The position numbers and the translations under genes are program-made. A stretch of DNA of 64,000 nt from Nitzschia sp. DOCU1 (lineage: Eukaryota > Bacillariophyta > Bacillariophyceae > Bacillariales > Bacillariaceae): positions 3,092,549 through 3,156,548 of the forward strand of contig OX595990.1 of the NCBI GenBank assembly GCA_951394045.1, given 5' to 3'. The notes under the pieces are model-generated. The model worked only from the letters and a program-made list of their open reading frames with translations, did not search any database and was not told where the DNA came from. Within the stretch, counting starts at the first letter, position 1; each line of letters begins with the position of its first letter. Below, piece after piece: positions 1,440-59,892 of this stretch.

Positions 1440-2465
1440 ATGACGAGTCTTCATCATCTTTGTTCGAAAGATTTTATGACATTGATTATCCGCCATGAGT
1501 GGGAACAAGCCAAGGTGGAAATCAAGCGAGATCGAGTGACGGCCCAGAAAAGTGCCAGACTCCAAGGGTTCTTGGGATGCAAAGGCGATTGCCAGGTCAC
1601 TCCCATGCATGTTGCTTGTGCCCACAATGCTCCTCTGGACTTTCTAGAAGTCTTGCATGGTTTGGATAAGTGTTATTTGCGTACTCGAGATTCTGTCTAT
1701 AAACGCTTGCCGCTGCATGTGGCCTTGATGTCGTCAGCTCATCCCCGAACGGTGCTACAGTTGATTCACTGGGATTCTACAGCCGCCCAAGGAAAAGATA
1801 TGTTGGGGCGATATCCTCTTCATTATGCATGTAATCATGGTGCAAGTGTGGAAGAGATTGAACACTTGATCAAGGCGTATCCCCAAGCTGTTACAATGGC
1901 AGATTCCAATGGCTGGTTACCGATTCACGTGGCCTGCCGGTTTGACATGTCCTTGTCTGTCATTCGTATGCTATTGAAGATTTATCCAACATCTATTCAT
2001 TTAAAGACTTCCAAAGGAACGACGCCACTGACCTATGCTCGTCGTACCAAAGATCAGGCTTTGATTACCTACTTGCAAAACCTGACTCAGTCAATACCGG
2101 CCCCAGACAATGACATTGACCACGCTTCCATTCATTTGGAAGAATTGGGTATCGAGGTGAAGGAACCGATCCACAGCGCCAATTTTTTGGATTTATCGAC
2201 GACGCAACTACACAACAACGTTTCCTTGACCGAGATTCGTCCCCGGATGGGAACAAGTTCGGCGTCCTCAGTCACGTCGAGTTTGACCAACTCTCCCACT
2301 GTCAGTCGCAGTAGTAGTGCTCGTGCCTTGGAGACGACGAGGGATGAGCAACTGGCTCGTCTAGCCTTTTCACCTCGTACCTCTCCCTACACCAAAACAA
2401 CGGATAAACATGTCCACCGCCTGCCATTTCTGGGGGAACGAATCGATGTGGATATCGACTTTTAG
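1440..2465 (+). CDS. Ankyrin-repeat protein
   Basis: A 341-aa single-exon protein starting at the ATG at 1440. About five ankyrin repeats fill residues 50-215; recognisable cores are TPMHVACAH, LPLHVAL, YPLHYACNHG, LPIHVACRF and TPLTYARR, each followed by a second helix and spaced about 30-35 residues. The C-terminal third is Ser/Thr-rich and predicted disordered, ending in a short charged tail. There is no signal peptide or membrane segment. Ankyrin proteins of this size are abundant in diatoms and usually act as protein-binding scaffolds; the sequence points to no specific partner. It is divergent from the fibrillin gene. Confidence 0.8.
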   Translation: MTSLHHLCSKDFMTLIIRHEWEQAKVEIKRDRVTAQKSARLQGFLGCKGDCQVTPMHVACAHNAPLDFLEVLHGLDKCYLRTRDSVYKRLPLHVALMSSAHPRTVLQLIHWDSTAAQGKDMLGRYPLHYACNHGASVEEIEHLIKAYPQAVTMADSNGWLPIHVACRFDMSLSVIRMLLKIYPTSIHLKTSKGTTPLTYARRTKDQALITYLQNLTQSIPAPDNDIDHASIHLEELGIEVKEPIHSANFLDLSTTQLHNNVSLTEIRPRMGTSSASSVTSSLTNSPTVSRSSSARALETTRDEQLARLAFSPRTSPYTKTTDKHVHRLPFLGERIDVDIDF

Positions 2466-3455: not shown

Positions 3456-6400
3456 ATGAGCCGCTGGGGTCCCCCGAAGACGCATTCTACTGAAGATCGT
3501 CGGAGTTTAACTCCTCCTCCCGTGGCTTCGTCGTCGCCAGGGAATGCTGGGTTTGCCGCGAATATCACCTCGACTGCCTTGCTAGAGGACGAAGGAGACC
3601 GTGGCTTTCAATTGATTGACGCGGTTGAATGGGCGGATCCATCGTATTATACCGATGGCATTAACAGTATTTATAGGACCGAAGATGGAGATGAATTGGC
3701 ATTTAAACCCAGACCTGATCGTTCTGATGATCCGTGTGGTTGTGTACGGCCCGAAGATCCTACGGTAATGACGTGCAATGATTTGTCGTGCGTTTTGTTT
3801 GCTTGTCAAGAAGAATGTCGTTCGTCTTGTATGGCGGGAGAACAATGTGGAAATAGACGCATCCAACGACGAGAATGGAAAGAATTGGAAATTTTTGATG
3901 CCGGCAAAAAGGGACGCGGGCTACGCGTATTAGAAGACGTTGCCAAGGGAGAATTTATAGCCGAATACGTGGGTCGGGCCATTCCTAAGCACTTTTTGCC
4001 GACGTTGTTTCAACGTTATTCGAATGAACGACGATTGTATATCATGGCTTTGGATGCAAATATTTATTTGGATGCCCGAAGGCGGGGAGGGATTGCCCGA
4101 TACATTAATCATTCCTGTGAACCGAATTGTGTCGTGGAACGATGGAAGGTCCGAGGCATTTTACGGGCCGCAGTCATTGCCACCAAGGATATTCCGGCAG
4201 GAACTGAGTTGACATTTGATTATCAGTGGGAACGCAAACGGGGGCGTGCTCCTACCAAATGTCATTGCGGGGCAACGGCCTGTCGGGGAACCTTGGAAGT
4301 TCCGAGGAGTATGGAAGAAGAAGCTCTCGAACGTCAATTGTCATCGCATTGGACGAAACCACTCATATCCAGAGCGCGCAATGAAATCGTCAATCGATGT
4401 GTGAGAGTCTTCTCCAAAGCAACACAAGAGTATTTCATTGCCGATGTTGCTGCCTTTGATGAATCGACGGGCAAACACTTGCTCATGTACCGTCATGACT
4501 TGGAAGAAGTATGGGAGGATTTGAAGCAAGAAGACTGGATGATTCTGGATGAAGAAGCTCAGCGATATGTTATTCGCAAAAAGAGCATCAACACCACGTC
4601 GTCTCTACTGGACGGTGCGGCGGTGGCGTCGTCGGTTCCGAGTTTCAATTTGCTGTTGAGTGGACAAAAGGCCAAGAATTATATCTATGTTCAAACTAGA
4701 GTCAAGGAACGCTTGGTGATCAAACACTTGATTGAACGCTGTCAGCGCAGTTGTCGTGTCTCGATTACACCACAGCAATTTTCCAAGCCGCCTCTAACGC
4801 CAGACCCAAATGATGTTGAAGAAGTTGAAAAATACAAGGCACTAGAGGAGTCCCCGGACGGAACAGTATGGAAGTTGACCATTGTGGGCTATGATATTTT
4901 GAAAGCTTACAGTATTCTGGAAAAGAATGTTGCCTACATCGAAAGGGAACTTTTTGGCATGGAGTCACATGCTGGAGCTAATGGAAAGGGGGAAGGCATT
5001 GCAACTGTCGAAGGAACTGGGACCGGTCTAATCAACACGACGGGACTACCACCAACCGAAGTGGTACTACCCAGGTCAATCGTCGAAGCCGTCAAACGCC
5101 GTTTACCCCTTTTACGGGCAAAGTGTACAAGTGTCAACATAACTTTTGTTCCATCCGAATCTAAAAGCAAGGAGTTTGCCAAATTGATTGTGGAAGGATC
5201 ATTACAATCCGACCTCGATAGTGCAAAGGAACAATTGTGGAAGCAACTCGTCACGGCATGCGAAGAAAATAATGCTCCCAAAACACAAGCGGGTGTTTAC
5301 AAAGATTTGGGCTTTTTGGGTGGCGAATTGAGCTCGTCGGACTTTCATCGCTTGCTTCAATACGACAAGACCACAGTCGTGGCGGCTACCACCTCCTCGG
5401 CCGCTGCGGCGGGTGGAGCTGTGGGGGGTGTACAGCCCGTAAGACATATTACCGCCAAGGAAGATTTGACCCGATGGTCACCCTTTTTCGCTTCGTTTGA
5501 ATCCACGCACCGATGTGCGATTTGGGTGCAGTCCGATGAGGACAAGGGGCGGATCGATAGCTCCAATCGCATCGTGGGCGAGGCGACTCCCAACGGTCCT
5601 CGCAAGATGTATTTTGGCTGCGACCCGAAGGCGATTCCCAAACTCTGGGGCTTGATCCAGCAACGCGCGTCCGATGTTGCTCGGGGCGTCAAGTACCTGT
5701 ACTTGGGTCCCGATCGACTTTATCAGCCTATGATGATGCGCAACAGTGGCCAATTTTTTGAGTTTGTTCGATCCGTCACGGGCGCGTCGGTGACGGTGGA
5801 TTCCATGACGGGAGACCATTTGCGCATTGATGGCAAGGGGGGTCCACAATACGTGGGCAATGGCTCGATGCTGGCGCCCATTGAAACGTCCGAAGTTCCG
5901 GATAGTGTTTCTGAAGGAGAGCGTGCGGCATTGGCGGAAGAGTTGATTCGACTTCAAATCGAACTCTATCGCGACCATTGCGTCCGACAACAAGCTTGGA
6001 TCTTTGGACGAGACTGGACCCTGGCTCGTCGAAGCTCGTCTCATTCATCGACTACACAAGATGATACGTCCAGTCCAATCAACAATCGAGCTGCGTTAGT
6101 TTCCTCACGCGCGCTATCGTTTGACTCCAAGTCCATGTCCAATGCTACTTTGGAAATCGCTGAAATCATTTCCACGTTGGAATTGGGGGGCGAAGTGGCT
6201 GCTCATGCGACTATCATCTTTTATCGCTTCGCCACTGTGTTGTCTCAGGCTGATGCGGCCGAATCTAATTTCAAAATGCGGGAAATTGAACTGGCGTGCA
6301 TCTTTCTGGCCGATAAGGCACAAAAGGTGACGAAATGGAAGAAGCTCGATTCGATATTAGAGGCAGCCTACAAGACATTTTATGCTGGCGCTACCTTTGA

Positions 6401-8957
6401 TTCTTCAAAGGAAGAAGTCCTGGTGTGGGAAGACAGAGTCATCAACGCCGAAAAAGAGATCCTCGCGACGCTCGACTATGATGTCTTTTGGAGGGGCCTC
6501 GACTGGATTTCTTCGGCGGCCGTTGAGGCGGGTATGCTTGACCCCAAGTTGGCCAAGGAGGCATTGACGTTTACAACTAGTGGCCCTGTATTGGCGGCAG
6601 GCCCCGACTTGTGGCTTACCTACGGTGCGGAATATGTATACGCTGCGGCGGCAGGATTTCTCGACGCCAAGCTGGAGAAACTCTTCCCCGCCCTCTCGCT
6701 AATTCCATTGAAGGTGCACCAAGCGGCCGAGATTATCCTGAGCTCTATGAAATACAACAGCTTTGGCAGGGTGCAGTCTTCCCATCCTCTCTTCAACGAA
6801 GGCAAGAGAGGCCTTCAAAAACGGATACCGATCATCAAGGAGACGTGTGCTCATAGCATGGGGTCCTTCGTCCCAGGCTATCGACTGGATCAAATGTCGG
6901 AACAGGAACAACGATATCGCTTGTTGGGACAACAAAACAAAACTCGACGGATTTTCAAAGGAGTCGACGCTGCCACTATCAAGAATGAAATCTTGCCAGC
7001 CTTGGATGGAATTGCAGCAGAAAGCAATTGCTCCATTTTCTTGCAGCGAGAAGAACACACGGGAATCGAACAAATTATTCTGGAAGGATCGTGGCGAGCA
7101 CTGTCGATTGCTGCTAATCTGCTGCAGAGGGCAGTCAATGGAATATGCCAGCTCGTGGCAGCGGAGAATGACAAGGCCGGAAGCACGTCCCAAAACAGTA
7201 TTCAGGCGAAGGGACAGCCGGGCTTGCTTTGGATGACGAAGATTGAAACGACGGATGGATGGTCGGATACGATTCAATCAAAGTTATCGACAGAGGTCTT
7301 TTGGGGCCGTAAGACGGGAGGAAAAACATGCGTTCCTGGCAAAATTAAGGAAGCTGACTTGCGCCAAGGTGGTCTTCGATGGTGGATTCCACCACGCTAT
7401 GGACCTAGTCCAACAGGAACGATTTGCGATATGTTCGTCGTCAACAACAGTGAGTCTGGGACGCTAGAGGCCTTGGCGAACCTGACGCACGCCTTTCAGG
7501 GTGAATCAGCGGCTTTTTCTATGCTCACGTCAATGATGGGACAGAAGCGTCCCAGTAACGGAGCAGCCGATCGATTCGTGGCAGTCTCGCTCCAGCGGTG
7601 GCCGACCGAAAAGGTAGCAAAGCGAGAACAAGGGAAAGACAAGAAGGACGAAACGGGCAAGGCCAAGAAAGGAAAGCGGGTATGGGAGGTTGGCTTCTCG
7701 GCTGGTGCGTTGCAAGAGATGCAAGTTCTCCACCGGATCCACGGATTGATCAAGTCGCCACAAGGCCATCCCAATTTTCTCTTGCCGATTGCTGTGGGCC
7801 TGCCCTCGGAAGAGAAAAAGAACGAAATGATGGACCTTTCCTCCATGGGGTCGAAGGGACTCGACTTGAAGCGGAAGCGGATCGACGAGGATATTTTCTC
7901 CTTGACGCGAAGTAGCCTAGAAAATGAGGTTGCCCTCGAAAGGGAACGCAAACGGAAAGACATGGTCACCGGGCCACATCTGGTATTTCACCCCACTCCG
8001 TTTGTCCTGCAGCGATTTACGGTGCGAAAGAAGAAACGCGACACCGAATCACAGGAGCAACTCATCACCCCTACGATCTTAGCGGCCTGGATGCACGACT
8101 TGCTTTCAGCAATGCTGCATTGTCATTCCAACGACATTATCCTCCGGAACTTTCTATCCGACCAAATCATGGTTGATCATAGTGGCGTGGTCAAATTTGG
8201 CAGCTTTTACCGCGCTTCAGTCTTATCCGAGGAAGACAAGCGGGCGGATATTCTTCGCCTAGCGAAGGATCGCAAAAAAGAGAAAAGGAAGCCCAAGCGC
8301 GACGAGCCTGATGATTTGCTTGCCAATCCTTACGCAGCGCCCGAAATGCTTCTTGGCTCACCTAAGTTTACCAAAGAGACAGACATCTGGACCTTGGGGT
8401 GCATGTTTTGCCATTTGCTACTTGGCAAGCCCGCCTACAGCGGCAAGGACCGTCAATCCATGTTGTCGGCAGCTTACAAACTCGTCGGGGTTCCAAGTTC
8501 TGAAAATTTTAAGGATGGAATCAAGTTTCCTCACTACGAGAAACCTCCGAAGCGGTACAATGCCGCGGTTGCCAAGGCGCTCAGCGCAATGATGAAGGAC
8601 GAGAGCCCAGAGCGGTTTGGAGGCGCATTGGACCTGATCAGTAAAATGCTTCAACTGGATCCCAAACAACGAATTACTGCTCAAGGAGCCCTTCAGCATG
8701 AGTATATGCAGACCTTCGTCGAGAACAGTTCCACGCCAGCTTTCCAAGAGGCGTTTGTTCGGGATTGGATTGCTCTGAAGAGTAGCCTGATGCGATCTAG
8801 CAAGACGGAAGAGGACGAACAGAACGAACGAGAGCGCGGCATCAAACGCAAAGCCATGTTGCTTGAAGCGTCCAAGGGTACTGGGGAAGATGATCTCTAC
8901 GATATTTACGACATTCTTGAGGAAGGGGGAAACGCGGCGAAAATGTCAAAATTCTAA
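3456..8957 (+). CDS. SET methyltransferase - KH-like - cyclin-like - CDK-like pseudokinase fusion protein
   Basis: One uninterrupted 1833-aa frame. The ATG at 3456 is the first in frame. Residues about 90-285 form a Cys-rich AWS-like segment, a SET domain (NHSCEPN at 218-224, catalytic-type Tyr256 in FDYQW) and a post-SET CxCx4C (Cys269, 271, 276), the layout of SETD2/ASH1-type H3K36 methyltransferases. Several KH-like segments follow (about 407-470, 537-600, 760-800, 1165-1225). Residues about 899-1098 look like two cyclin boxes of the transcriptional (K/L/T) kind. Residues about 1370-1750 resemble a CDK-type kinase: the C-lobe is clear (APE at 1628-1630, DIWTLG with Asp1643), but HRD is LRN (1563-1565), the catalytic-loop Asn is Gln1570, DFG is Ser1583-Phe-Tyr, and the beta-3 Lys appears to be Ser1378. 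It should therefore be a pseudokinase. The enzyme likely acts on nucleosomes in transcribed chromatin; that role is inferred. Confidence 0.85.
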   Translation: MSRWGPPKTHSTEDRRSLTPPPVASSSPGNAGFAANITSTALLEDEGDRGFQLIDAVEWADPSYYTDGINSIYRTEDGDELAFKPRPDRSDDPCGCVRPEDPTVMTCNDLSCVLFACQEECRSSCMAGEQCGNRRIQRREWKELEIFDAGKKGRGLRVLEDVAKGEFIAEYVGRAIPKHFLPTLFQRYSNERRLYIMALDANIYLDARRRGGIARYINHSCEPNCVVERWKVRGILRAAVIATKDIPAGTELTFDYQWERKRGRAPTKCHCGATACRGTLEVPRSMEEEALERQLSSHWTKPLISRARNEIVNRCVRVFSKATQEYFIADVAAFDESTGKHLLMYRHDLEEVWEDLKQEDWMILDEEAQRYVIRKKSINTTSSLLDGAAVASSVPSFNLLLSGQKAKNYIYVQTRVKERLVIKHLIERCQRSCRVSITPQQFSKPPLTPDPNDVEEVEKYKALEESPDGTVWKLTIVGYDILKAYSILEKNVAYIERELFGMESHAGANGKGEGIATVEGTGTGLINTTGLPPTEVVLPRSIVEAVKRRLPLLRAKCTSVNITFVPSESKSKEFAKLIVEGSLQSDLDSAKEQLWKQLVTACEENNAPKTQAGVYKDLGFLGGELSSSDFHRLLQYDKTTVVAATTSSAAAAGGAVGGVQPVRHITAKEDLTRWSPFFASFESTHRCAIWVQSDEDKGRIDSSNRIVGEATPNGPRKMYFGCDPKAIPKLWGLIQQRASDVARGVKYLYLGPDRLYQPMMMRNSGQFFEFVRSVTGASVTVDSMTGDHLRIDGKGGPQYVGNGSMLAPIETSEVPDSVSEGERAALAEELIRLQIELYRDHCVRQQAWIFGRDWTLARRSSSHSSTTQDDTSSPINNRAALVSSRALSFDSKSMSNATLEIAEIISTLELGGEVAAHATIIFYRFATVLSQADAAESNFKMREIELACIFLADKAQKVTKWKKLDSILEAAYKTFYAGATFDSSKEEVLVWEDRVINAEKEILATLDYDVFWRGLDWISSAAVEAGMLDPKLAKEALTFTTSGPVLAAGPDLWLTYGAEYVYAAAAGFLDAKLEKLFPALSLIPLKVHQAAEIILSSMKYNSFGRVQSSHPLFNEGKRGLQKRIPIIKETCAHSMGSFVPGYRLDQMSEQEQRYRLLGQQNKTRRIFKGVDAATIKNEILPALDGIAAESNCSIFLQREEHTGIEQIILEGSWRALSIAANLLQRAVNGICQLVAAENDKAGSTSQNSIQAKGQPGLLWMTKIETTDGWSDTIQSKLSTEVFWGRKTGGKTCVPGKIKEADLRQGGLRWWIPPRYGPSPTGTICDMFVVNNSESGTLEALANLTHAFQGESAAFSMLTSMMGQKRPSNGAADRFVAVSLQRWPTEKVAKREQGKDKKDETGKAKKGKRVWEVGFSAGALQEMQVLHRIHGLIKSPQGHPNFLLPIAVGLPSEEKKNEMMDLSSMGSKGLDLKRKRIDEDIFSLTRSSLENEVALERERKRKDMVTGPHLVFHPTPFVLQRFTVRKKKRDTESQEQLITPTILAAWMHDLLSAMLHCHSNDIILRNFLSDQIMVDHSGVVKFGSFYRASVLSEEDKRADILRLAKDRKKEKRKPKRDEPDDLLANPYAAPEMLLGSPKFTKETDIWTLGCMFCHLLLGKPAYSGKDRQSMLSAAYKLVGVPSSENFKDGIKFPHYEKPPKRYNAAVAKALSAMMKDESPERFGGALDLISKMLQLDPKQRITAQGALQHEYMQTFVENSSTPAFQEAFVRDWIALKSSLMRSSKTEEDEQNERERGIKRKAMLLEASKGTGEDDLYDIYDILEEGGNAAKMSKF

Positions 8958-10935: not shown

Positions 10936-12616
10936 ATGGCGTCTGAAGTTCTGCCCCTCATCGTCGATGATGAGAAGGATGCAATTCTGGGTCTTTTGCA
11001 AGTCGGGTTTCAACGAGACATTGTCAAAGAAGAGCCCGAAAGACCTGAAAAGAAGATCAAACTGGAGCTAGAAGAAGCCACGTATGAGGGTGAAACCACA
11101 GTGGGGTCGCCGGTTCTTACCTCTCGTGCGGCTGAAGGCGAAGATGATGACGCCTTCCCCTCTGACCCGCGGCCTCAGCCGATCTCCCCCCTTCCGGATC
11201 ATTCAACAACGGCATCTGCCACGGGCAGCACACCCCGAGAAGTCATCAAAAAGCGCAAGCACCATGCCAGTGTCGAAGGTCAATATGAAGATGCCGAGGA
11301 GAGCAACGTCTTTAACCCCCAGTTAAAGGTAAATAAGGATGAAAGCGATCACCGCCAGCCGTCTGGTGAACCGCACGCGGTGCCTCCACCGCCCCACTTG
11401 ATTCAGCAGACATCAAATGAATATACTCCCCCGCCACCTGCTTTACAAGCGCAGACGTCTGCCGAACTAGCCCGCCAAGCGTTGGCATATCAGCAGCAAA
11501 GATCATTGATGGAGAACGGCATGTTCCCTTCTCACTTCGCGGCCATGATGGCGGCTGGTCCTATGAAAGGAACCATGGGAGAAACCTTTCTAGAGCGAGA
11601 GCATCGTTTGCAAATGGAAATTCTTGCCATGCAAGCGCATATGCACATGTCGAGACAAGCCGGAGCAGCCGCGGCGGCTGCTGCTGGTGCCACTACTCCC
11701 TCCCAGGGAAAATTAGGATCATTGCTAGCTGGAGCAGCGGCGACGGGATATGGGGTCGGATCAAATCAACTTCCACTTGCCACACTTCAAGCTATGGATC
11801 GAAGGTACGATGCCTTGCGAAAGAGTGGCGCCGTTTTTGTTACGCCGCCGGCTGCTGAAGCCATGGGAGAGCCAATGGCCACCAATACCAAACCCAGCCC
11901 TTCCAAAGAAAGTTCCGTAACCGAAGGAGCCGACGCCGCGGAAGCCGCCGTTGCTGATCATGAGTACGAGTATGCCATGAAGCCACCTACTCGAGTCGAG
12001 TCCGAAGATGATTATGGCGACGAGAGTGACGACGATGCTAGCAAGACGCAAAAGAGTGGGTCAAAGACTGTGTCCACCAAGGAACGCTACGAAAAGTACA
12101 AGCCCCCTACCTCTTGGGGAGAAATCACCCAAGTTCGCAAAATGCCGTATGTTAACGCCGATTACAAGTTTGAGCATCCAATTGCTGAACTGGGCGAAAA
12201 TGATGTGATGCTCGGAAGAGGAGGACTCTCCAACCAGAACACTGGAAACATTCGATTCCGTAAATTGGTGAGAAACTATCGGATTCACTATTGTACGGCT
12301 CCCAAGGGTGACAAGGGAGCTCTTGCTCGGTATCTCTGCAATTATGTCCGAGCTATGGGTGGCCGCTTTTTACAACTACGCAAGGACAAGAATGGAGGCG
12401 AGAGCACTGGTGCCTGGGTACGTAATGACAACAATGGATGAACTTTCTGCAAATCCTTCCTCTTTCTAACTGGACCTGACTCTTCTTTTTTAAAAGTATG
12501 AAGTGGGGGATGAGAAGGCAGTATCTAAGTGTGGCCAAGCATTGCGTGAAGGAACGGCCGAGTTTGCACGCAAACGAAAGCAATCAACTCTCGATTCACT
12601 CGGAAGCGAGAAATAG
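10936..12616 (+). CDS. DUF6824-domain protein, two exons
   Basis: The first exon is 10936-12417; the intron 12418-12496 begins GTACGT and ends AAAAG, and the second exon runs to the TAG at 12614-12616. The protein is 533 aa. The C-terminal domain (from about residue 422) starts NDVMLGRGGLSNQNTGN and continues with the NYRIHY helix, a GGRFLQL strand and, across the splice, GAWYEVGDEKAVSKCGQALR. This is the full DUF6824 pattern of a GRGG-type start, central basic helix and closing W...K...QALRE helix. The N-terminal 420 residues are disordered, with Pro, Ala and acidic tracts and an Asp/Glu-rich stretch before the domain. The domain's function is unknown; a nuclear regulatory role is a common guess. 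The second exon confirms the splice because it completes the domain in frame. Confidence 0.88.
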
Positions 12617-12847: not shown

Positions 12848-14599
12848 CTAAGAGAAGAACCGCTTTAGCGCCGCAGGAGCAGCATCGACCGCTGCCACGA
12901 CCTCCTCGCCCCGGTCTTTCTTGTTTTCAAGCTTTTCCTTCTCTCGAGCCTCTCTCAGTTTGAGTGTCTGCTCGTCAATAATATTGTTGTGCTTTCTTCG
13001 AAGCTTCGACTGAATCTTGCTTCGACCGCGTCTCTTGTTCTTCACTCTAGCAGCCTTCTTTTTCGCGTTGGCTTGTTCTTCCAAATCCTGCAACCGTGCC
13101 CGACGGACATCCTCGGAACTGGATTCGACGCCTCCAATTTCATGGGGATCCAATGTGATCATGTTGGGAGCTAGTTTGTCCAACAACGCGCGCACTTCGG
13201 CTTCTCGTCGCTGTTTCTTGTCTTGGAAGGGATCCAAATGGTACTCGCTCGAATCCAAATTGGGTTCCCCAGATCCAGGAACAACAATCGAACTAATGCC
13301 CTTCGTATGGCCAATGCCGCAGACATCTTGAAAGGGTCGGAATCGTAACGTCTCGATAGGACCACAAGCGGGGATAGAATGACGCATGTAGGGGTCCTTG
13401 CACTTGGTAGACAAGGACTCGGGCGACCAAAACGTGGCGTGACAGCCATGGGCAATTCCTACCACCCGTCGTTGTGAGATATCCAACGAAGTAGGAACGC
13501 CCGCTGGTACAAAATAGGAATGGGTATTACGATAAGTGCGCAAATCCCATATCTTGACCTGCCGATCGGCTCCACCAGTCACCATGTAGCGCCCCGAAAT
13601 GTCAACAGCCAATGAGGTAATCTTAGCACCCTTGTGACACAGCAACTTGACTAAATATTGGGACGATGATGGCGACCACAGCGTGACTGTTCCATTGTTG
13701 TGACCTAGATGCATGATAGCGTTGGATTGGTTCTGTCGGAGAACATCGCATGGGCCAAGCTTGGTCTTGTGTTGACACACAAGCTCTCCAGTGGACGTAT
13801 CCTGATATCGCAGGATGCCCTGGCGCCCGACACTAGTGAGCAGCCAGTGATGTGGTAAGAAGTCAACAGCAAATGGGTCTTGATGATCACTCAATTTGTG
13901 AATTTCGGCCCCGGCGTCGTCATAAATGTAAACGTGGTTGGTTTGTGCCACGGCTAGCATACTGAAATTGTGCAAAAAGCAGGCGTCGCGAGTGCGCTCT
14001 TGAACATGAAATTCAGTATGAAGCTTAAGATTGTGGGCGTCCATTATCGCCAAGTGCCCGCGCTGTCCATAAAGAACAGAGTATCGACCGGATCGATCAT
14101 ATTTGCAGCCATACGGCGCATAAGGCAAAGTCAAATCATATATCTGCCTCGCCGTTTGTTCGTCCAAATGTTCTCGCTTGAGTTCAACCTGACTTAATGC
14201 TGTCGTCCTCTCCATTTCCGTCTCGGTTTCCAAGAACCCCGATGCCTCGGTATGAAGCACGACTTGAGCATCGGCCGACGCCACTGCTGCCTCGTATCGC
14301 TTGGCCCTGGAAATTTGAAGTTTCGCGGTTGTTGATTTGTCTTTTCGATGAATCCGGTGCTCAAGCGCCCGCTGTTGATAGCCACTCAGCCTCTCGGATC
14401 CCGCCTGATCCTTAGAGAGGTTGGATAAGCGATATTGCTGATTCGAATCGACATCATATGCCGCAATAATCTCTCGATCTTTGGACGAGCGTTGCTTGTG
14501 CTTGAGTTCCTGATGACGCTTTCGGGCTTCTTTGTTGTTGATTCCCCTGGACACGCCCAAGGTTGCTTTGTCGCCATCACCCTCACTTGTCTTGGCCAT
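12848..14599 (-). CDS. UTP7: WDR46/UTP7-like U3 snoRNP (SSU processome) WD40 protein
   Basis: A 583-aa protein of the UTP7/WDR46/BING4 family, which acts in 18S rRNA maturation within the small-subunit processome in the nucleolus. After a basic, helical N-terminus the WD-repeat region shows IYDLTLPYAPYGCKYDRSGR, GRYMVTGGADRQVKIWDLR and other blades. It is followed by the BING4CT signature around SSIVVPGSGEPNLDSSEYH and PFQDKKQRREAEVRALLDKL. The C-terminal tail is Lys/Arg-rich, typical of nucleolar proteins. The frame stays open upstream to about 14818, but the first in-frame ATG is at 14599 in a good ACAACAATGGC context, so I start there. Divergent from the GT31-like gene at 15021. Confidence 0.93.
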   Translation of the reverse strand: MAKTSEGDGDKATLGVSRGINNKEARKRHQELKHKQRSSKDREIIAAYDVDSNQQYRLSNLSKDQAGSERLSGYQQRALEHRIHRKDKSTTAKLQISRAKRYEAAVASADAQVVLHTEASGFLETETEMERTTALSQVELKREHLDEQTARQIYDLTLPYAPYGCKYDRSGRYSVLYGQRGHLAIMDAHNLKLHTEFHVQERTRDACFLHNFSMLAVAQTNHVYIYDDAGAEIHKLSDHQDPFAVDFLPHHWLLTSVGRQGILRYQDTSTGELVCQHKTKLGPCDVLRQNQSNAIMHLGHNNGTVTLWSPSSSQYLVKLLCHKGAKITSLAVDISGRYMVTGGADRQVKIWDLRTYRNTHSYFVPAGVPTSLDISQRRVVGIAHGCHATFWSPESLSTKCKDPYMRHSIPACGPIETLRFRPFQDVCGIGHTKGISSIVVPGSGEPNLDSSEYHLDPFQDKKQRREAEVRALLDKLAPNMITLDPHEIGGVESSSEDVRRARLQDLEEQANAKKKAARVKNKRRGRSKIQSKLRRKHNNIIDEQTLKLREAREKEKLENKKDRGEEVVAAVDAAPAALKRFFS

Positions 14600-15020
14600 T
14601 GTTGTTATTTCGTTCAATATACAGTCAGGTGCAATGTCACTTAAAATTTTAGTGTCGAATGTTCGAGGGAGAAATGTGTTTAGTCCCCCATCATCGTCGT
14701 TGGCAGCAGATTTCGCTTCCTGAAATTTTTTGGTGGTTGTCGTCTTTTCGCTGGTGTCATCGCATTGGTGGTCGATTGGGTCGTCGGAGCGGAATCGCGC
14801 GTACCATTCCGTTGGCACCCCTAACTATCTAAGCTGTAATACAATAGCCCCCAACCCAAACCCTAATCTTTCATTTATTGTGGTTCTTTTATCGATCTAC
14901 TCGACTACTTCGAGACTCTCCATCTTGCACACCATCTCGCGTCTAAAAGAACGCCGTCATTATTCGGCCATTCATCCTCTTTGCCATGCCTTAGAAAGCT
15001 ACCGCTAGTTCTATCGAACA
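14600..15020. other. Divergent promoter region, UTP7 / GT31-like copy 1
   Basis: Short region between two divergent starts. From about 14968 to the ATG at 15021 it is similar to the sequence preceding the inverted copy at 29694, so the duplication includes part of the 5' flank. No gene seen. Confidence 0.5.
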
Positions 15021-17087
15021 ATGGGCCTTCCGACGGTCTATGGAGATTTCCACCGTATCTTCCGTGGATGGTGGCGGAGCAGCCGTTCGTTCATTTTCTG
15101 TGTTGCAGTCTTTTCATGGTCGAATTTGCTTTATGGCTTTCGAGGACAAAGATCATTTCTCATTGCTACGACCGGTGAAGATGCCGTTGTGAGGTCAACA
15201 CATGGAAACTCATTTGTTGCAGGAATCAACGTCACATCTTTCGTTCCTGGCGTACTGCCCCACCATGAGGTTCTACAGACAAGGTCTAATACTACGAGAA
15301 ACCCCATCGATTCGTCATCTCAGCCGGTCACTGCTGGAATAATGCCACAACCCCTCCCTGTCCCTAGTTCCGTTACTGTTTCCACTGTAACAGTGACCCC
15401 AGGCCGAATCCTACTGGGTATCGACAGCAAAATCCTAAAAAGTGCCGGTTCCATGACATGGCGACATATAATTCGACGAACGCATCTCGATTTTGAACGC
15501 CTTTACCGAAACGATGAACCCAATCCAGTATGTTCCTTGCGAGCCTTTCGGTCGGCACCGGACCAGTTTTCACATTGTCGCTTGATTTATACCTTTGTGG
15601 TACCACCGGCAAAGAACAAAGTGAACAAAACGATACCAAGAGGAGAGGAACTTGTCTATTTGCCTTCCAACAAGTCGGAACAGGATCTGCTGGTCCTGAA
15701 TGTCGACGAAAATGATGCCGTGGGAAAATGCTGGGGCTGGTTTCGATATGCATCTTCGCTCATGCAGAAGGTTTCTCATTTATCTTTTGCCGCATATTCC
15801 ACCATGGACGTCCTGATGAAACCGACCAATTTTTGGAGGCTGAATACCTTGTTTCGCGAAGACAATGCCACGGTTATCTATGGGGGACTACCTGGGACAA
15901 CGACGAACTGCAACGGTACTTGCAAGTTGACGGACAAGTTCATTTTGTTGTCGTCCGACGTGGTGCACCACGTCGCTTCTCAGGATATCCCGCCATGGAA
16001 TGCGACCACCAAGAAACACCCAGCAGTGAGCATTGCCAATGCCATTCAATCTTACGCCATGGATCACAAAGTTCGCAAAGTGGAACTGCAAGGGCTGGAA
16101 GACAGATCAAAAGACGCTCCGTATCACCGATTGAAAGCATTCGACAAGTACAAGGACTCATTAGTGAACTACACGGATCCGGTGGAAGAGGCTTTGGTGT
16201 TGTCCAAACATCAAGCTTCGTTGCTACTATCAAACAAGAATCGAAAGCCAGGACTCTTGCTTGGAATCTTTACCATGGACAGTCCAACGGAGCACGATCG
16301 ACGAAACGCAATTCGAGAGTCCTATCTTCAAGCATTTGTTGGGACCGAAACACCACATCGTATCTGTTCCGTCGCCAAACTGGGAAGCATAGATGAGGAC
16401 GCAAAGAATGAATGTCAAATGGGATATATTTTTGTTACCAGTGGCAACCCGAATGGTACTACCGAGCTTGTAGAAGTGACTGATGAATCTGGGCCCGTTG
16501 CTTTGGAGCATGATATGGTACCGGATTCCGTTCGTCTCCCTGACCACGACATGCGCGACATGGTTTATCTCAATATCCAGGAGAATATGGAAGACGGCAA
16601 GAGTCAAACGTATTTCAAGTATGCAGTGAGTCTGCTGGATGACCACTACTTTGACTACATTGCCAAAACAGACACGGATACCCTGATCGTTCCACATGTC
16701 TTGCTCCAACAAATGACCAAGAAAATGCCTGTATTCCCCGAGAATGTGCGCATCTATGCTGGCAAATACAGAATTCACTTTCATTTTTTTCAATTCGGCC
16801 CTGCGTATATGCATGGCCAGTTCTACATGATGAGTCCGGATCTGGCACGATTCATAACATCCCCGGCCTGTAACCGAACTGCCGTACAGAGACGCGTTGA
16901 AGACTGGGCGATTGCAAATTTTATCTACCAACACCCACAACACATTCGTCGTTTTGAGTTACAAGGACAAGAACGTGGTTACAGACGACCAGCAGATGAC
17001 TCGTGGTATCATCCATTTAAAAATTCTAGTACCTTTCGACAGAGGTGGGTGACGCTGTCGCAAAAGAAGAAGCAAACAAGAAGTTAA
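15021..17087 (+). CDS. GT31-like glycosyltransferase, type II membrane protein (copy 1)
   Basis: A 688-aa single-exon protein. A hydrophobic segment near residues 23-38 is a likely signal anchor, so the catalytic part should face the Golgi lumen. Residues about 408-660 match the GT31 (beta-1,3-galactosyl/GlcNAc-transferase) plan: RRNAIRESYLQAF, YFKYAVSLLDDHYFDYIAKT, the metal-binding DTD at 551-553, IYAGKY, FYMMSPDLARFI and an ED pair at 627-628. Residues about 125-400 repeat the same order of elements in degraded form (RILLGIDS, WRHIIRRTHLDFERLY, WFRYAS, a STMD where DxD is expected, VIYGG, FILLSSDVVHHV), suggesting an internal duplication whose first unit lost the metal site. Several NxS/T sequons fit a lumenal protein. 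The closest relative is the inverted copy at 27631-29694. Acceptor and donor sugar are unknown. Confidence 0.8.
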   Translation: MGLPTVYGDFHRIFRGWWRSSRSFIFCVAVFSWSNLLYGFRGQRSFLIATTGEDAVVRSTHGNSFVAGINVTSFVPGVLPHHEVLQTRSNTTRNPIDSSSQPVTAGIMPQPLPVPSSVTVSTVTVTPGRILLGIDSKILKSAGSMTWRHIIRRTHLDFERLYRNDEPNPVCSLRAFRSAPDQFSHCRLIYTFVVPPAKNKVNKTIPRGEELVYLPSNKSEQDLLVLNVDENDAVGKCWGWFRYASSLMQKVSHLSFAAYSTMDVLMKPTNFWRLNTLFREDNATVIYGGLPGTTTNCNGTCKLTDKFILLSSDVVHHVASQDIPPWNATTKKHPAVSIANAIQSYAMDHKVRKVELQGLEDRSKDAPYHRLKAFDKYKDSLVNYTDPVEEALVLSKHQASLLLSNKNRKPGLLLGIFTMDSPTEHDRRNAIRESYLQAFVGTETPHRICSVAKLGSIDEDAKNECQMGYIFVTSGNPNGTTELVEVTDESGPVALEHDMVPDSVRLPDHDMRDMVYLNIQENMEDGKSQTYFKYAVSLLDDHYFDYIAKTDTDTLIVPHVLLQQMTKKMPVFPENVRIYAGKYRIHFHFFQFGPAYMHGQFYMMSPDLARFITSPACNRTAVQRRVEDWAIANFIYQHPQHIRRFELQGQERGYRRPADDSWYHPFKNSSTFRQRWVTLSQKKKQTRS

Positions 17088-27630: not shown

Positions 27631-29694
27631 TTACTTCTTTTTCTTTTGCGACAGCGTCGCCCACCCCTGTCGAAAGGTATGGACATTTTTCACTGGATGA
27701 TACCACGAATCTTCTCCTGGTCGTTTGGAACTTATTGGTCCTTTTAACTCGATGCGACGAGTATGCTGTGGGTGCAAAGAGATAAAAGTTCCAATGTCAG
27801 AGTCTTCCACGCGTCTCGTTACGGCAGCTTTTCGGTGACAGGCCGGGGAGGTTATAAATCGTGCCAGATCCGGGCTCATCATGTAGAGTTGGCCTTGCAT
27901 ATACACAGGACCGACAGAAGTTCTGTATTTGCCAGCATAGATGCGCACATTCTCGGGGAATACAGGCATTTTCTTGGTCATTTGTTGGAGCAAGACATGT
28001 GGAACGATCAGGGTATCCGTGTCTGTTTTGGCAATGTAGTCAAAGTAGTGGTCATCCAGCAGACTCACTGCATACTTGAAATACGTTTGACTCTTGCCGT
28101 CTTCCATATTCTCCTGGATATTGAGATAAACCATGTCGCGCATGTCATGATCCGGGAGACGAACGGATGGCGGTACCAGATCATGTTCCAAAGCGACAGG
28201 CCCGGATTCGTCACTCACATCCACGAGCTCAGTAGCACCGTTCGGGTTGCCGCCGGTAACAAAAATATATCCCATTCGACATGCATTCCTTGCCTCCTCA
28301 TCCATGCTTTTCAGTTTGGCGACGGAACAGATACGATGTGGTGTTTCGGTCCCGACAAATGCTTGAAGATAGGTCTCTCGAATTGCGTTTCGTCGATCGT
28401 GCTCCGTTGGACTGTCCATGGTAAAGATTCCAAGCAAGAGTCTTGGCTTTCGATTCTTGTTTGATTGTAGCAACGACGCTGGATGTTTGGACAGCACCAA
28501 GGCCTCTTCCACCGGATCCGTGTAGTTCACCAATGTGTCCTTGTACTTGTCGAATGCTTTCAATCGGTCAGACGGAGCGTCTTTTGATCTGTCTTCCAGC
28601 CCTTGCAGTTCCACTTTGCGAACTTTGTGATCCATGGCGTTAGATTGAATGGCATTGGCAATGCTCACTGCTGGGTGTTTCTCGGTGGTCGCATTCCGTG
28701 GCGGGATATCCTGAGACGCGACGTGGTGCACCACGTCGGACGACAACAAAATGAACTTGTCCATCAACTTGCAAGTGCCTTTGCAGTGCTTCGTTGCCCC
28801 AGGTAGTCCCCCATAGATAACCGTGGCATTGTCTTCGCGAAACAAGGTATTCCGCCCCCAAAACTCGGTCGGTTTCATCAGGATGTCCGTGGTGGAATAA
28901 GCCGCAAAGGAGATCATTTGTGCAGGATTCTGCAAGATGAACGAAGATGCATATCGAAACCAGCCCCAGTATTTTCCCACGGTATCATTTTCGTCGACAT
29001 TCAGAACCAATAAATCGTGATCCCAGTTGTTGGAAGGGATATAGACAAGTTCCTCTCCCCTTGGTACAGTAGTGTTCACTTTGTTCTTGGCCGGCGGCAC
29101 CACAAAGGCATAAATCAAGCGACAATGTGAAAACTGGTCCGGTGCTGAGCGAAAGGATCGCAAGGAACATACTGGATTGGGTTCATCGTATCTGTAAAGG
29201 CGTTCAAAATCGAGATGGGTTTGTCGAATAATGTGGCGCCATGCCGTGAAAGTATTCTTTGGCCTGGCGTCTTGTTGGCTGTCGATACCCAGTAGGATTC
29301 GGCCTGGGGGCAATGTTGCAGTGGAAACAGTAACGGAACTAGGGAAAGGAACCGACTGTGGTATTAATCCAGTGATCAGTGCAGCTGACGAGTCGCTCAT
29401 GTTCTTCGTAGTAGACCTTGTCTGAAGAATGTCCTGGTGGGGCACACGTAGACCACCAGTAGCCAGCGAGATAGGAACCATCGATGTGGTGTTGCTTCCT
29501 GCAACAAATGACTTTTCATTTGTTGACCCCACGCCATCATTTCCACCGATCTTAGCAATAATAAATGATCTTTGTCCTCGGAAGCCATAAAGCAAATTCG
29601 ACAGCGAAAAGATTGCAGCACAGAGAATCAAAGAACGGCCCAACGATCCGCTCAAGCTACGGTGAGAATCTCCATCGTCAATCCGAAGCCCCAT
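27631..29694 (-). CDS. GT31-like glycosyltransferase, type II membrane protein (copy 2, inverted duplicate)
   Basis: A 687-aa single-exon protein, closely similar to copy 1 along its length. It has the N-terminal signal anchor (LILCAAIFSLSNLLYGF), the degenerate first GT31-like unit (with STTD where the DxD should be) and the intact C-terminal unit with DTD at 558-560, IYAGKYR, YMMSPDLARFI and a VEDSDIG ED pair. Compared with copy 1 it lacks a few residues after IYAGKYR (copy 1 has an RIHFHFFQF insertion) and diverges most at both ends. A 226-bp stretch across the DTD motif is identical in DNA to copy 1 (see findings). The ATG at 29694 aligns with that of copy 1. Confidence 0.8.
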   Translation of the reverse strand: MGLRIDDGDSHRSLSGSLGRSLILCAAIFSLSNLLYGFRGQRSFIIAKIGGNDGVGSTNEKSFVAGSNTTSMVPISLATGGLRVPHQDILQTRSTTKNMSDSSAALITGLIPQSVPFPSSVTVSTATLPPGRILLGIDSQQDARPKNTFTAWRHIIRQTHLDFERLYRYDEPNPVCSLRSFRSAPDQFSHCRLIYAFVVPPAKNKVNTTVPRGEELVYIPSNNWDHDLLVLNVDENDTVGKYWGWFRYASSFILQNPAQMISFAAYSTTDILMKPTEFWGRNTLFREDNATVIYGGLPGATKHCKGTCKLMDKFILLSSDVVHHVASQDIPPRNATTEKHPAVSIANAIQSNAMDHKVRKVELQGLEDRSKDAPSDRLKAFDKYKDTLVNYTDPVEEALVLSKHPASLLQSNKNRKPRLLLGIFTMDSPTEHDRRNAIRETYLQAFVGTETPHRICSVAKLKSMDEEARNACRMGYIFVTGGNPNGATELVDVSDESGPVALEHDLVPPSVRLPDHDMRDMVYLNIQENMEDGKSQTYFKYAVSLLDDHYFDYIAKTDTDTLIVPHVLLQQMTKKMPVFPENVRIYAGKYRTSVGPVYMQGQLYMMSPDLARFITSPACHRKAAVTRRVEDSDIGTFISLHPQHTRRIELKGPISSKRPGEDSWYHPVKNVHTFRQGWATLSQKKKK

Positions 29695-30664: not shown

Positions 30665-32716
30665 TTATCGCTGTGTAGAGCCTATATCGTAGTCACCAGG
30701 CTCGCGCTCGACAGCCCCAAGACGACTTGCATTCCACATGGAGCGAAAGGCCTCAACGTCCTTAACAGGATGGTCAAACACACCTTGCTTCTTGACGGTA
30801 CCTTTGCGTCGAATTGGTTTAGGGAGGGAGTGCACAAAGTTGCCAATGCTCAAGTCTTCAATATGCGTGTCGACAGCCGTCCGATTGCAAGCTTGGGAGG
30901 TGATGAACCTCGCCAAGTCGGGGCTCATCATGTAGAAGCGTCCTTCCATGTACGCCGGTCCCAATTGTGGTTCCTTGGTCGGATGCACAGCGTAGTGACC
31001 AGCATAGACACGTACATTGTCCGGGAACTTGGGCAACTTGTAGATCACCTGCTCGAGCAAGGCTTCGGGGTACACAATGGTATCCGTATCCGTTTTTGCC
31101 ATGTAATCAAAGTAATACTTGTCGAGAAGGGTGGTTGCATATTTGAAGTACGTAGGACTCTTGCCATCTTCCATGTTTTCCTTAATGTTCAGATAGGCGA
31201 TATCCCCCTTGTCGTGATCAGGTAGGCGGATGGACTTTGGTACCTTGTTCGCAGGAATGACAATGGGCCCAGTCGTCCCTGACTCTTCTACGTATTCGGT
31301 AGGACCATCGGGATTTCCACCAACGACAAAGACGTGGGCGATTTCACACTCGTCTCTCTGCTTGTCACTCATAGTTTCGAGCTCGCCAATAGAACAGATG
31401 CGATGCGGAGTATCCGAGTCAACAAACGCTTGTAGATAGGTACTTCGAATCGTTTCTCTTCGTTTCAACTCGGTTGGACTGTCCATGCTAAATATTCCAA
31501 GCAGCAGGCGCGCTTTTCGTTCCTTCACTCGCAATGACGGAAGCTTTGACAATACCAAGGCTTCTTCGACTGGATCCGAATAGATTGTCAACTGGTCTTT
31601 GAACAGGTCATATCGATAAATGAAGTGTTCCATGTAAACACTCGTTGGATGTTTCATTGGAATCGAATCCAGTCCACGTAGGGCCACTTCTTGGATTGGG
31701 TACGGAAAAGACGCCAAGCCGTTGGCAATTGCTACATCTGGTGAATCTCTTGTTCCATCTGTTAATTTGGGAACGGGTTGTTTCGCGAGATGGTCGACCA
31801 AGTCGGTGGAAAGCAAAACAAAGTGGTCCATAAAGGTTTCTCTGACAAGAGAGGCGCAATAGTTCAAGTCTTTCCGTTGGCATGTCGTCTTGGAAGTGGG
31901 TACCCCACCGTAAATTCTTCGGAGACGCAACGAAGGGTCTAGCGCGTCATCTTCCGTGTTCTGAAATAAAGGATTGTCATCCCAGAAGATGCTCGGCTGA
32001 ATCAACATTTGGCAATCGATATACCCCACCAATAAAGGAATGTCGTCGCTATTCTTCTTTTTCTTCTTGTTACTGCGTAATAATGTCGACGACACGTATC
32101 GAAACCAGCTCCAACGCTTTCTTACCCGATCCGCCACTTCTAGATTGAAATGGATCAAATCCTTTTCTGATGTCAAGTTGCGAAAAATCTCTGGCGGTAA
32201 CACATCTCCAGGGCTAAATTTCTTCTTGAATAGTTTCTTGGGTCCACTCAGAAATGTATAGATCAAACGGCAGTGTGGATAGTCTTGGGGGGCCGCAAAG
32301 AATTCCTGCATGGTGCAGACTCGATTCGGCTCGTCAGGACGGTGCAGTCGATCAAAATCAAGATAGGTCTTTCGGGCAATACGACGGCGCTTCAACGGAT
32401 TGACATCAAATACTCGTTCACTTTCAATGCCGAGTAGAATCCTGATTGGATGTTGTTGTTGGCTGCGTTGTCGTAGCGTTGGCTTGGTGGAATTTCGTAA
32501 GAACGGGCCACTCGATAGTTTGAGATCCATCGGCACCGAGACTGCAGACGCGGAATGCTTTCGTGGAGGTATCTGTACGGGATGCATTGGCACGTCCCCT
32601 AGTTCATGGTGCGTAGCATCAATCGCGATCGAATTCCAGATGGAATCTCCAACCAAGAGCGAAACAACCATGGGGATAACACACATCAAGTGCTTTCTGG
32701 TGAAACGCAACATCAT
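30665..32716 (-). CDS. GT31-like glycosyltransferase, type II membrane protein (copy 3, divergent)
   Basis: A 683-aa single-exon paralogue of the two genes above, clearly older. It starts with a short basic stretch and one hydrophobic anchor (about residues 10-25). The C-terminal GT31-like unit keeps RRETIRSTYLQAFVDSD, YFKYATTLLDKYYFDYMAKT, DTD at 543-545, VYAGHY, FYMMSPDLARFI and IEDLSIGNF. The N-terminal unit is again degraded (LLVGYIDCQMLIQP at the DxD position). The tandem position behind copy 2 on the same strand suggests a local family expansion. It has a Lys-rich loop (NKKKKKNSDD) not seen in the other two. Two adjacent ATGs at 32716 and 32713 could start it. Confidence 0.8.
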   Translation of the reverse strand: MMLRFTRKHLMCVIPMVVSLLVGDSIWNSIAIDATHHELGDVPMHPVQIPPRKHSASAVSVPMDLKLSSGPFLRNSTKPTLRQRSQQQHPIRILLGIESERVFDVNPLKRRRIARKTYLDFDRLHRPDEPNRVCTMQEFFAAPQDYPHCRLIYTFLSGPKKLFKKKFSPGDVLPPEIFRNLTSEKDLIHFNLEVADRVRKRWSWFRYVSSTLLRSNKKKKKNSDDIPLLVGYIDCQMLIQPSIFWDDNPLFQNTEDDALDPSLRLRRIYGGVPTSKTTCQRKDLNYCASLVRETFMDHFVLLSTDLVDHLAKQPVPKLTDGTRDSPDVAIANGLASFPYPIQEVALRGLDSIPMKHPTSVYMEHFIYRYDLFKDQLTIYSDPVEEALVLSKLPSLRVKERKARLLLGIFSMDSPTELKRRETIRSTYLQAFVDSDTPHRICSIGELETMSDKQRDECEIAHVFVVGGNPDGPTEYVEESGTTGPIVIPANKVPKSIRLPDHDKGDIAYLNIKENMEDGKSPTYFKYATTLLDKYYFDYMAKTDTDTIVYPEALLEQVIYKLPKFPDNVRVYAGHYAVHPTKEPQLGPAYMEGRFYMMSPDLARFITSQACNRTAVDTHIEDLSIGNFVHSLPKPIRRKGTVKKQGVFDHPVKDVEAFRSMWNASRLGAVEREPGDYDIGSTQR

Positions 32717-59070: not shown

Positions 59071-59892
59071 TTTGCACCGAAATGAAAAGCAAACGCGATC
59101 TTCCTTGATTGAAACCACAAACGATACCGGAAGCACCAATCACACAATCAACAACAACAACAACAACAAGCTCAGATGATAGTGATAGTAACACAAGAAG
59201 ACGGCACAGAGAGTTATTGCGGTTTTGAGAAGTGAATGGTGTGAACCTCCGACTTCCGAATCTTGCACAGGAAGGCGGGGATGCTTTGTTGATGCTTTTG
59301 GAGCACCGCTACTCTAAACCTGCCCGTTGTGGGAGAAAACGCCACTGGGACAAAATACCCCAGAACGTCACGAGGGAACAACGTAGAAGGGGTCGGACAA
59401 TAGGTGATTCGCGGAAGGATGCGAATGCCATCAGAAAAGGCTTATGTGCGACTTAGGACCCATTTGAACTTACAAGCCCGATACAAAACTCCAGCTATAG
59501 AGTTCTCGTTTAGATAATTCTCCAAATAGCCCTCGCCACGTGCAGTAGCCGTATTGAGAACTATTTGGGGCTTATTTCATTTCGAAAAGAATCGCTTCTT
59601 CTGACGCACTTCCTTGCGCTCGAATGTACCACTATGGGTACAAAGGTAGATAGTAACCTTATACTAGTAGATACAACGATGCTTATCTGTCCCGCGAAGT
59701 ATATCCATCCTCGTGAATGAATACATTGGAACATAAGTAAAATTCAAACCCCCGTTGGTACTGCGACACAAAATTTAGACGCATGGCGGGCAATCAGCAC
59801 ACCGCAGAAGGCGTTGTTTTCATTATCAAAGAGTTGGATTATCCCACAACACTGTTTGGGGTATCCTTTTAACTCCTTCGGTGCTTTTGACC
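59071..59892. other. Divergent spacer, cyclase-PDE / coiled-coil gene
   Basis: Holds both promoters. A CAACAACAA tract (about 59149-59168) sits just ahead of the cyclase start. Only short ORFs without features are present. Confidence 0.4.

What the first reader, a model, noticed from the sequence alone, without database searches (positions are those of the whole stretch)
3456..8957. Single-chain fusion of a SET methyltransferase, cyclin-like boxes and a CDK-like lobe
One uninterrupted frame of 5.5 kb joins an AWS-SET-post-SET module of the H3K36 kind to a cyclin-like region and a CDK-like kinase lobe. In animals and fungi, SET2/SETD2 is recruited by RNA polymerase II whose tail has been phosphorylated by separate CDK/cyclin pairs. 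Here the writer, a cyclin and a kinase-like partner are in one chain, which would physically merge transcription-kinase and methyltransferase machinery. I know of no described protein with this order.
Basis: partly seen in the sequence, partly recalled or inferred. Interest (0 to 1): 0.92.

Follow-up and report, generated by a model that had tools for sequence, protein, structure and literature searches.

The report
Histone methyltransferase fused to cyclin–pseudokinase
One long diatom gene joins an apparently working histone-marking enzyme to a cyclin and a CDK-shaped kinase that has lost its catalytic residues, which suggests that diatoms bring this chromatin mark to genes with a built-in docking platform and not with a working kinase.

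Summary
Window 3456-8957 (+) is one open frame of 1833 aa with an AWS-SET-post-SET module of the H3K36 class, a weakly matching cyclin region and a CDK-like kinase fold. Of the 120 proteins listed (of 142 found), 115 carry both SET and kinase domains, at 38-76% identity. Sources that name an organism name diatoms, except one dinoflagellate label that groups with Cyclotella. Some are assembled transcripts. It is a conserved family, not a gene-model artefact.

The interpretation needs a correction: the kinase is dead. The HRD aspartate is kept in 0 of 135 sequences, the DFG aspartate in 0 of 134, and the catalytic-lysine position is serine in 136 of 136. The stretch with the PSTAIRE-like helix is the best-conserved one measured, and the cyclin Lys and Glu that contact it in known complexes are invariant (136 of 136). 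The likely design is a self-contained cyclin/pseudo-CDK scaffold attached to an active H3K36 writer.

An inactive CDK-like kinase fused to an N-terminal histone methyltransferase was reported in Phytophthora in 2010 (PITG_14137, PMC3019232), so the pairing is not wholly new. The section I read mentions no cyclin in PITG_14137 and calls the structure absent from other species. Orthology could not be tested.

The parts
3456..8957 (+). Gene without introns in the coding frame, 1833 aa: SET methyltransferase / Tudor-like / KH-like / cyclin / pseudo-CDK fusion
   Evidence: open frame; 115 of 120 listed relatives carry both SET and kinase; both ends conserved in 7 of 8 compared
3726..4310 (+). AWS-SET-post-SET module of the H3K36 class, aa 91-285, catalytic residues intact
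4389..4553 (+). Tudor/SH3-like small beta barrel, aa 312-366 (tentative)
   Evidence: five predicted strands; PTM_DIR17_Tudor in 1 of 25 members at E<=0.1, best 0.0048, weaker hits in single scans
4668..5273 (+). Two KH-like alpha/beta units, aa 405-502 and 532-606 (tentative; no GxxG loop seen by eye)
   Evidence: secondary structure of the model; unit-to-unit hhalign p 0.0011 over 20 columns
5433..5855 (+). Conserved alpha/beta middle region of unknown fold, aa 660-800
   Evidence: mostly high pLDDT; not separately fold-searched
5919..6020 (+). Highly conserved helix (RLQIELYRDH...FGRDW), aa 822-855, before the cyclin
   Evidence: mean conservation 0.76, second highest of the stretches measured
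6126..6755 (+). Tandem cyclin fold, aa 891-1100, two sets of about five helices; CDK-contact residues K954 and E999 invariant
   Evidence: Cyclin_N in 12 of 12 fragments; cyclin L2 E=0.014; hhalign to cyclins of the same genome E=3.1e-4, probability 39%; K954 and E999 136 of 136; helices
6933..7151 (+). Third KH-like unit, aa 1160-1232 (tentative)
   Evidence: secondary structure; KH_1 0.043 in P0088 at 1202-1242; hhalign to the second unit p 0.0013, to the first p 0.14
7209..8792 (+). Pseudo-CDK, aa 1252-1779: whole CDK fold, catalytic residues lost
7689..7790 (+). PSTAIRE-equivalent helix region (consensus SPAALQEMQLL), aa 1412-1445
   Evidence: best-conserved of the 17 stretches measured, mean 0.79, 10 of 34 positions invariant
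8121..8219 (+). Degenerate catalytic loop and DFG region (HRD Asp is N1565, DFG Asp is S1583), aa 1556-1588
   Evidence: HMMER alignment to CDK5; counts

Best explanation
This is the diatom form of an H3K36-class histone methyltransferase. The SET module looks catalytically competent. Where Set2/SETD2 has a C-terminal SRI domain that reads phosphorylated RNA polymerase II, this chain carries a cyclin followed by a CDK fold that has lost catalysis but kept the cyclin-binding helix. Cyclin and pseudo-CDK most likely dock on each other inside the chain, like a permanently assembled CDK/cyclin pair (a conserved contact set and a confident joint model; docking itself inferred). That module then works as a docking platform that holds the methyltransferase on the elongating polymerase or its kinase machinery, with the Tudor-like and KH-like units adding contacts to chromatin or nascent RNA (inferred, not shown). 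Shown: order of domains, conservation across diatoms, intact SET residues, loss of kinase residues. Inferred: H3K36 as substrate, intramolecular docking, recruitment role.
For: SET closest to ASH1L, SETD2, NSD and Set2 among solved structures. Catalytic SET residues present in 133 of 133 readable sequences of 136. Kinase residues lost: 0 of 136, 0 of 135, 0 of 134, while the stretch with the PSTAIRE-like helix is the best conserved (0.79, against 0.60-0.70 for the other stretches measured within aa 1250-1750). Cyclin K954 and E999 invariant in 136 of 136; a Lys and a Glu at these places are invariant in five cyclins of this genome and align in the profile comparison. The cyclin plus kinase model (aa 820-1833) has pTM 0.82, against 0.45 for the SET-to-middle model at similar pLDDT, so cyclin and kinase appear to be predicted as one body. 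No SRI match in the protein (E<=1), in 25 members (E<=0.1) or in the genome (no positive control). SET and kinase together in 115 of 120 listed relatives. H3K36me3 was identified in the diatom Phaeodactylum (abstract of PMC10421102).
Against: No biochemical evidence. No predicted-error matrix or coordinates were seen, so docking rests on pTM. The SRI search in the genome had no positive control. The cyclin match of this protein alone is under Pfam's cut-off, a single-sequence PDB search with the region finds nothing, the profile comparison probability is only 39%, P0024 shows no Cyclin_N at E<=0.5, and the cyclin fold was not reached by the structure search because kinases filled the list. The single-sequence SET search prefers ASH1L over SETD2, so an ASH1-like role away from polymerase is possible.
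Confidence: 0.5

Rival explanations
1. The kinase is active, so the chain is a true transcription CDK/cyclin fused to the writer.
For: Whole CDK fold with a cyclin in cis.
Against: Catalytic Lys 0 of 136, HRD Asp 0 of 135, DFG Asp 0 of 134; the 8 activation segments printed differ in length and make-up.
Confidence: 0.03
2. The module works in trans: the cyclin captures a separate active CDK, or the pseudo-CDK captures a separate cyclin, so the writer carries a working kinase with it or keeps one inactive.
For: CDK-contact residues of the cyclin and the PSTAIRE-like helix are both kept. Diatoms have separate transcription-type CDKs: two CDKC and one CDKD in P. tricornutum (PMC2872877, passages).
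Against: Both partners lie in one chain and the joint model has pTM 0.82.
Confidence: 0.2
3. The pseudo-CDK/cyclin part is an allosteric switch for the SET domain (or ties the mark to cell-cycle state) and not a recruiter.
For: Pseudokinases often act as allosteric regulators (recalled); the SET and C-terminal halves are conserved together.
Against: The model of SET to middle region has low pTM (0.45), suggesting flexible linkage; SET and pseudo-CDK were not modelled together.
Confidence: 0.2
4. Gene-model or assembly artefact joining neighbouring genes.
For: One transcript marked complete (P0143) and other shorter proteins lack the SET half.
Against: Same order at similar length in many assemblies and in four complete-marked transcripts; conserved ends; the shorter proteins start at scattered internal places.
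Confidence: 0.01

Closest known systems
PITG_14137 of Phytophthora infestans and its P. ramorum and P. sojae orthologues (PMC3019232, CMGC section read)
   Same: Inactive CDK-like kinase fused to an N-terminal histone-lysine methyltransferase, in another stramenopile.
Set2/SETD2, ASH1L and NSD H3K36 methyltransferases
   Same: AWS-SET-post-SET module and catalytic residues.
   Different: No SRI match; instead a cyclin and pseudo-CDK, plus Tudor-like and KH-like units.
CDK12/cyclin K, CDK9/cyclin T and CDK11/cyclin L
   Same: CDK fold matched by CDK12 and by many other CDKs within 1 Z unit; the only solved cyclins reached by sequence profile are L2 and L1, weakly.
   Different: One chain, cyclin before kinase, no catalytic residues.
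Four Phytophthora CDKs with C-terminal cyclins (PMC3019232)
   Same: CDK and cyclin in one chain, catalytic Asp replaced.
   Different: Kinase first, cyclin last; no methyltransferase mentioned.
'SETD2 homologues' of diatoms with extra motifs IV-VII (PMC10421102, passages)
   Same: Possibly the same proteins, described as AWS-SET-PS plus further conserved motifs.
   Different: The motifs are not identified in the passages; 'cyclin' and 'kinase' occur 0 times in the main text. Identity with the present family was not tested.

Membership tests
H3K36-class SET methyltransferases (Set2/ASH1/NSD group) | AWS-SET-post-SET module with closest similarity to this class | tested here: met
   AWS is under Pfam's cut-off in the window protein and found in 4 of 25 members at E<=0.1
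H3K36-class SET methyltransferases (Set2/ASH1/NSD group) | Intact catalytic residues and post-SET cysteines | tested here: met
   N218, H219, F254, D255, Y256 in 133 of 133 readable rows of 136; C269, C271, C276 invariant in 29 aligned rows
H3K36-class SET methyltransferases (Set2/ASH1/NSD group) | Methylates H3K36 | not testable with these tools
   needs an assay
Set2/SETD2 orthologues proper | C-terminal SRI domain | tested here: not met
   no Pfam SRI match in the protein at E<=1 or among 25 members at E<=0.1; genome search empty but without positive control; a strongly diverged SRI is not excluded
Cyclin-dependent kinases | CDK fold with PSTAIRE-type helix | tested here: met
   the motif is SPAALQE-like, not PSTAIRE itself
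Cyclin-dependent kinases | Catalytic Lys, HRD Asp, DFG Asp | tested here: not met
   0 of 136, 0 of 135, 0 of 134
Cyclins | Cyclin_N sequence match | tested here: met
   20 of 25 full-length members at E<=0.1, 12 of 12 fragments; the window protein alone is sub-threshold (0.0028)
Cyclins | Two five-helix cyclin boxes by structure comparison | tested here: inconclusive
   helix pattern fits, but kinase matches filled the structure lists
Cyclins | Conserved CDK-contact Lys and Glu | tested here: met
   K954 and E999 136 of 136, aligned to the same residues of cyclins of this genome; their contact role is recalled from cyclin A
PITG_14137-type fusion | N-terminal histone methyltransferase plus inactive CDK-like kinase | tested here: met
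   against the description
PITG_14137-type fusion | Sequence orthology | tested here: inconclusive

The most novel reading that the evidence does not exclude
Diatoms, and perhaps stramenopiles at large, replaced the SRI-based recruitment of their H3K36 writer with a built-in, catalytically dead CDK/cyclin that mimics a transcription CDK complex and so places the methyltransferase where P-TEFb or CDK12 would sit on the elongating polymerase.
Probability: 0.35. Interest if true: 0.82.

Novelty: new variant of a known kind. Interest (0 to 1): 0.64.

Why it matters
H3K36 methylation is coupled to transcription in animals and fungi through separate CDK/cyclin kinases and a phospho-reader (recalled, and passages of PMC10421102). 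A chain with a kept cyclin, a kept cyclin-binding helix and a discarded kinase centre, conserved in centric and pennate diatoms, would show that a CDK/cyclin pair can be exapted as a pure scaffold, and would make the recruitment step testable in one gene of a transformable alga.

Tried and rejected
Active kinase: rejected on residue counts. Chance ORF or merged genes: rejected, in spite of P0143, a transcript marked complete without the SET half. A dinoflagellate relative: P0090, labelled Alexandrium tamarense, groups with the three Cyclotella rows (support 99), so I treat it as mislabelled or contaminated. Viral relatives: 66 stretches in viral contigs matched a peptide pattern and none encoded a relative of the cyclin region. 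A single-sequence PDB search with the cyclin region gave 0 matches at E<=1; only the profile reached cyclin L2 at 0.014 and L1 at 0.2. AWS and SRI in the whole genome: empty, but no positive control rang, so no absence is claimed. KH-like units: weak support only (KH_1 in 2 of 25 members, best 0.0043; P0088 0.043; of the three unit pairs two reach p about 0.001 at hhalign probability 18-21% and the third p 0.14); kept as tentative. Non-diatom relatives: the three protein searches listed 120 of 142, 120 of 244 and 90 of 90 hits; unlisted hits of the first two and candidates never scored could include other lineages, so restriction to diatoms is not claimed. Paper searches; they cover open-licence PMC papers only, I looked at the listings, and beyond PMC3019232 and PMC10421102 I saw nothing on this architecture. 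Huysman 2010 (author recalled; PMC2872877, passages only) has 0 occurrences of 'SET domain', 'methyltransferase' and 'fusion' in its main text. Another locus with a SET match in a long frame, L004, shows a 673-aa frame that by eye is a different kind of SET protein and not a second copy of this gene.

Full report
What is there. Window 3456-8957 on the + strand is one open frame of 1833 codons before the stop. Chance is excluded: 200 shuffles of the stretch gave no open frame above 222 codons, and the protein has full-length relatives; identities in the list run from 38 to 76%. Pfam finds SET (aa 153-257, 4.6e-21) and Pkinase (1527-1751, 3.6e-21), with Cyclin_N (901-1010, 0.0028) and AWS (101-139, 0.016) below their cut-offs.

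How far it is conserved. One search found 142 proteins and listed 120; 115 of the 120 carry both precomputed SET and kinase domains, and 12 of the 120 also a precomputed Cyclin_N domain. One search found 244 and listed 120; one search found and listed 90. The one other label, Alexandrium tamarense (P0090), groups with the three Cyclotella rows (support 99) in a tree of 39 rows. In that tree the Cyclotella, Discostella and Cyclostephanos rows fall in one group and the named pennates in another, and the window protein pairs with Nitzschia sp. Nitz4 (support 99). The window is therefore probably from a pennate diatom of the Bacillariaceae, and the fusion is older than the split of these lineages if descent was vertical. 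The root is a midpoint. Four relatives are assembled transcripts marked complete with the whole order (P0038, P0084, P0097, P0124). A fifth, P0143 (1065 aa), is marked complete but lacks the SET half; it begins at position 761, inside conserved sequence, and the 20 shorter or domain-incomplete relatives examined begin at scattered positions (44 to 1243), so I read them as truncated. The Nitz4 gene name spans 5,454 bases for 1,817 aa, which fits a single exon there too.

The cyclin. Evidence is several weak lines that agree: Cyclin_N in 20 of 25 full-length members at E<=0.1, best 1.3e-7, in 9 of 10 relatives scanned singly at E<=0.5 with P0024 the exception, and in 12 of 12 cut-out regions, best 4.2e-8; cyclin L2 (0.014) and L1 (0.2) as the only two PDB matches of the profile, while the single sequence finds none; hhalign to five cyclins of the same genome E 3.1e-4, probability 39%; two runs of about five helices at aa 891-1005 and 1016-1100. 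The Lys and Glu that contact the PSTAIRE helix in known complexes (cyclin A K266 and E295, recalled) are K954 and E999 here, 136 of 136.

Why docking is likely. In the kinase the stretch around the PSTAIRE-equivalent helix (consensus SPAALQEMQLL against PSTAIREISLL, the latter recalled) is the most conserved, mean 0.79 with 10 of 34 positions invariant, against 0.70 for the catalytic loop and 0.65 for the C-lobe, over 127 near-full-length rows of 136; the stretches were chosen by me. The AlphaFold2 model of aa 820-1833 has pLDDT 79.6 and pTM 0.82, whereas that of aa 75-900 has pLDDT 77.1 and pTM 0.45. So cyclin and pseudo-CDK appear as one body and the SET to middle part as beads on flexible links. 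I saw no coordinates or error matrix.

Other parts. A five-strand barrel at aa 312-366 with weak Tudor matches (best 0.0048 in 1 of 25 members), three KH-like units, and a very conserved helix at 822-855. The Tudor and KH readings are tentative.

Mechanism. Set2/SETD2 is brought to the polymerase through the SRI domain (PMC10421102, passages), which reads a tail phosphorylated by separate CDK/cyclin pairs (recalled). Here no SRI is found and the C-terminal half is a cyclin plus a dead CDK. The most economical reading is that a CDK/cyclin pair was reused as a docking platform for the writer. Rivals are capture of a partner kinase or cyclin in trans, and allosteric control of the SET domain; they are not excluded. 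Phaeodactylum has separate transcription-type CDKs (PMC2872877, passages).

Prior art. Judelson and Ah-Fong 2010 (authors recalled; PMC3019232, the CMGC section read in full) describe PITG_14137 as a CDK-like protein with inactivating substitutions fused to an N-terminal histone-lysine methyltransferase, with orthologues in P. ramorum and P. sojae 'but not other species'. This is the closest known thing and probably related; its sequence was not seen. The diatom family shown here extends the pairing widely and adds the cyclin. Wu and Tirichine 2023 (PMC10421102, passages and abstract) noted conserved motifs IV-VII in diatom SETD2 homologues; the words cyclin and kinase do not occur in its main text. 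In the listings of ten paper searches I saw nothing else on it.

Verdict. Observation confirmed; interpretation right on the parts and wrong on the activity. A new variant of a known kind, of good interest because of its conservation and the clean loss of catalysis beside kept cyclin contacts.

Noticed in passing
window 1440-2465 (+): Ankyrin-repeat protein of 341 aa (Ank_2 1.8e-13) upstream of the fusion gene.
   Followed up: no
window 10936-12441 (+): 501-aa ORF with DUF6824 near its C-terminus (3.3e-14).
   Followed up: no
window 12848-14818 (-): WD40 protein with a BING4CT domain (1.7e-31).
   Followed up: no
window 15021-17087 (+), 27631-29694 (-), 30665-32716 (-): Three ORFs with the same galactosyltransferase family (PF01762) in one window, perhaps copies of one another.
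   Followed up: no
window 56905-59139 (-): ORF whose C-terminal end matches only positions 9-83 of 183 of a guanylate cyclase domain (PF00211, 1e-18), so the gene may continue in another exon.
   Followed up: no
L001 and L002 (G000:C1:3493557 and C1:5402651): Two SET matches on one contig with identical scores and open-frame lengths on opposite strands: a recent duplication or an assembly effect.
   Followed up: no
P0090: EukProt protein labelled Alexandrium tamarense groups with three Cyclotella proteins (support 99), so the source is probably mislabelled or contaminated.
   Followed up: partly
P0143: MMETSP transcript marked complete (1065 aa) that carries the cyclin and kinase half but not the SET half; it starts at position 761 of the window protein, inside conserved sequence.
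   Followed up: partly
PMC3019232: Four Phytophthora CDKs carry C-terminal cyclins and all have the catalytic Asp of subdomain VIb replaced by Asn, a second kind of probably inactive CDK/cyclin fusion in a stramenopile.
   Followed up: no
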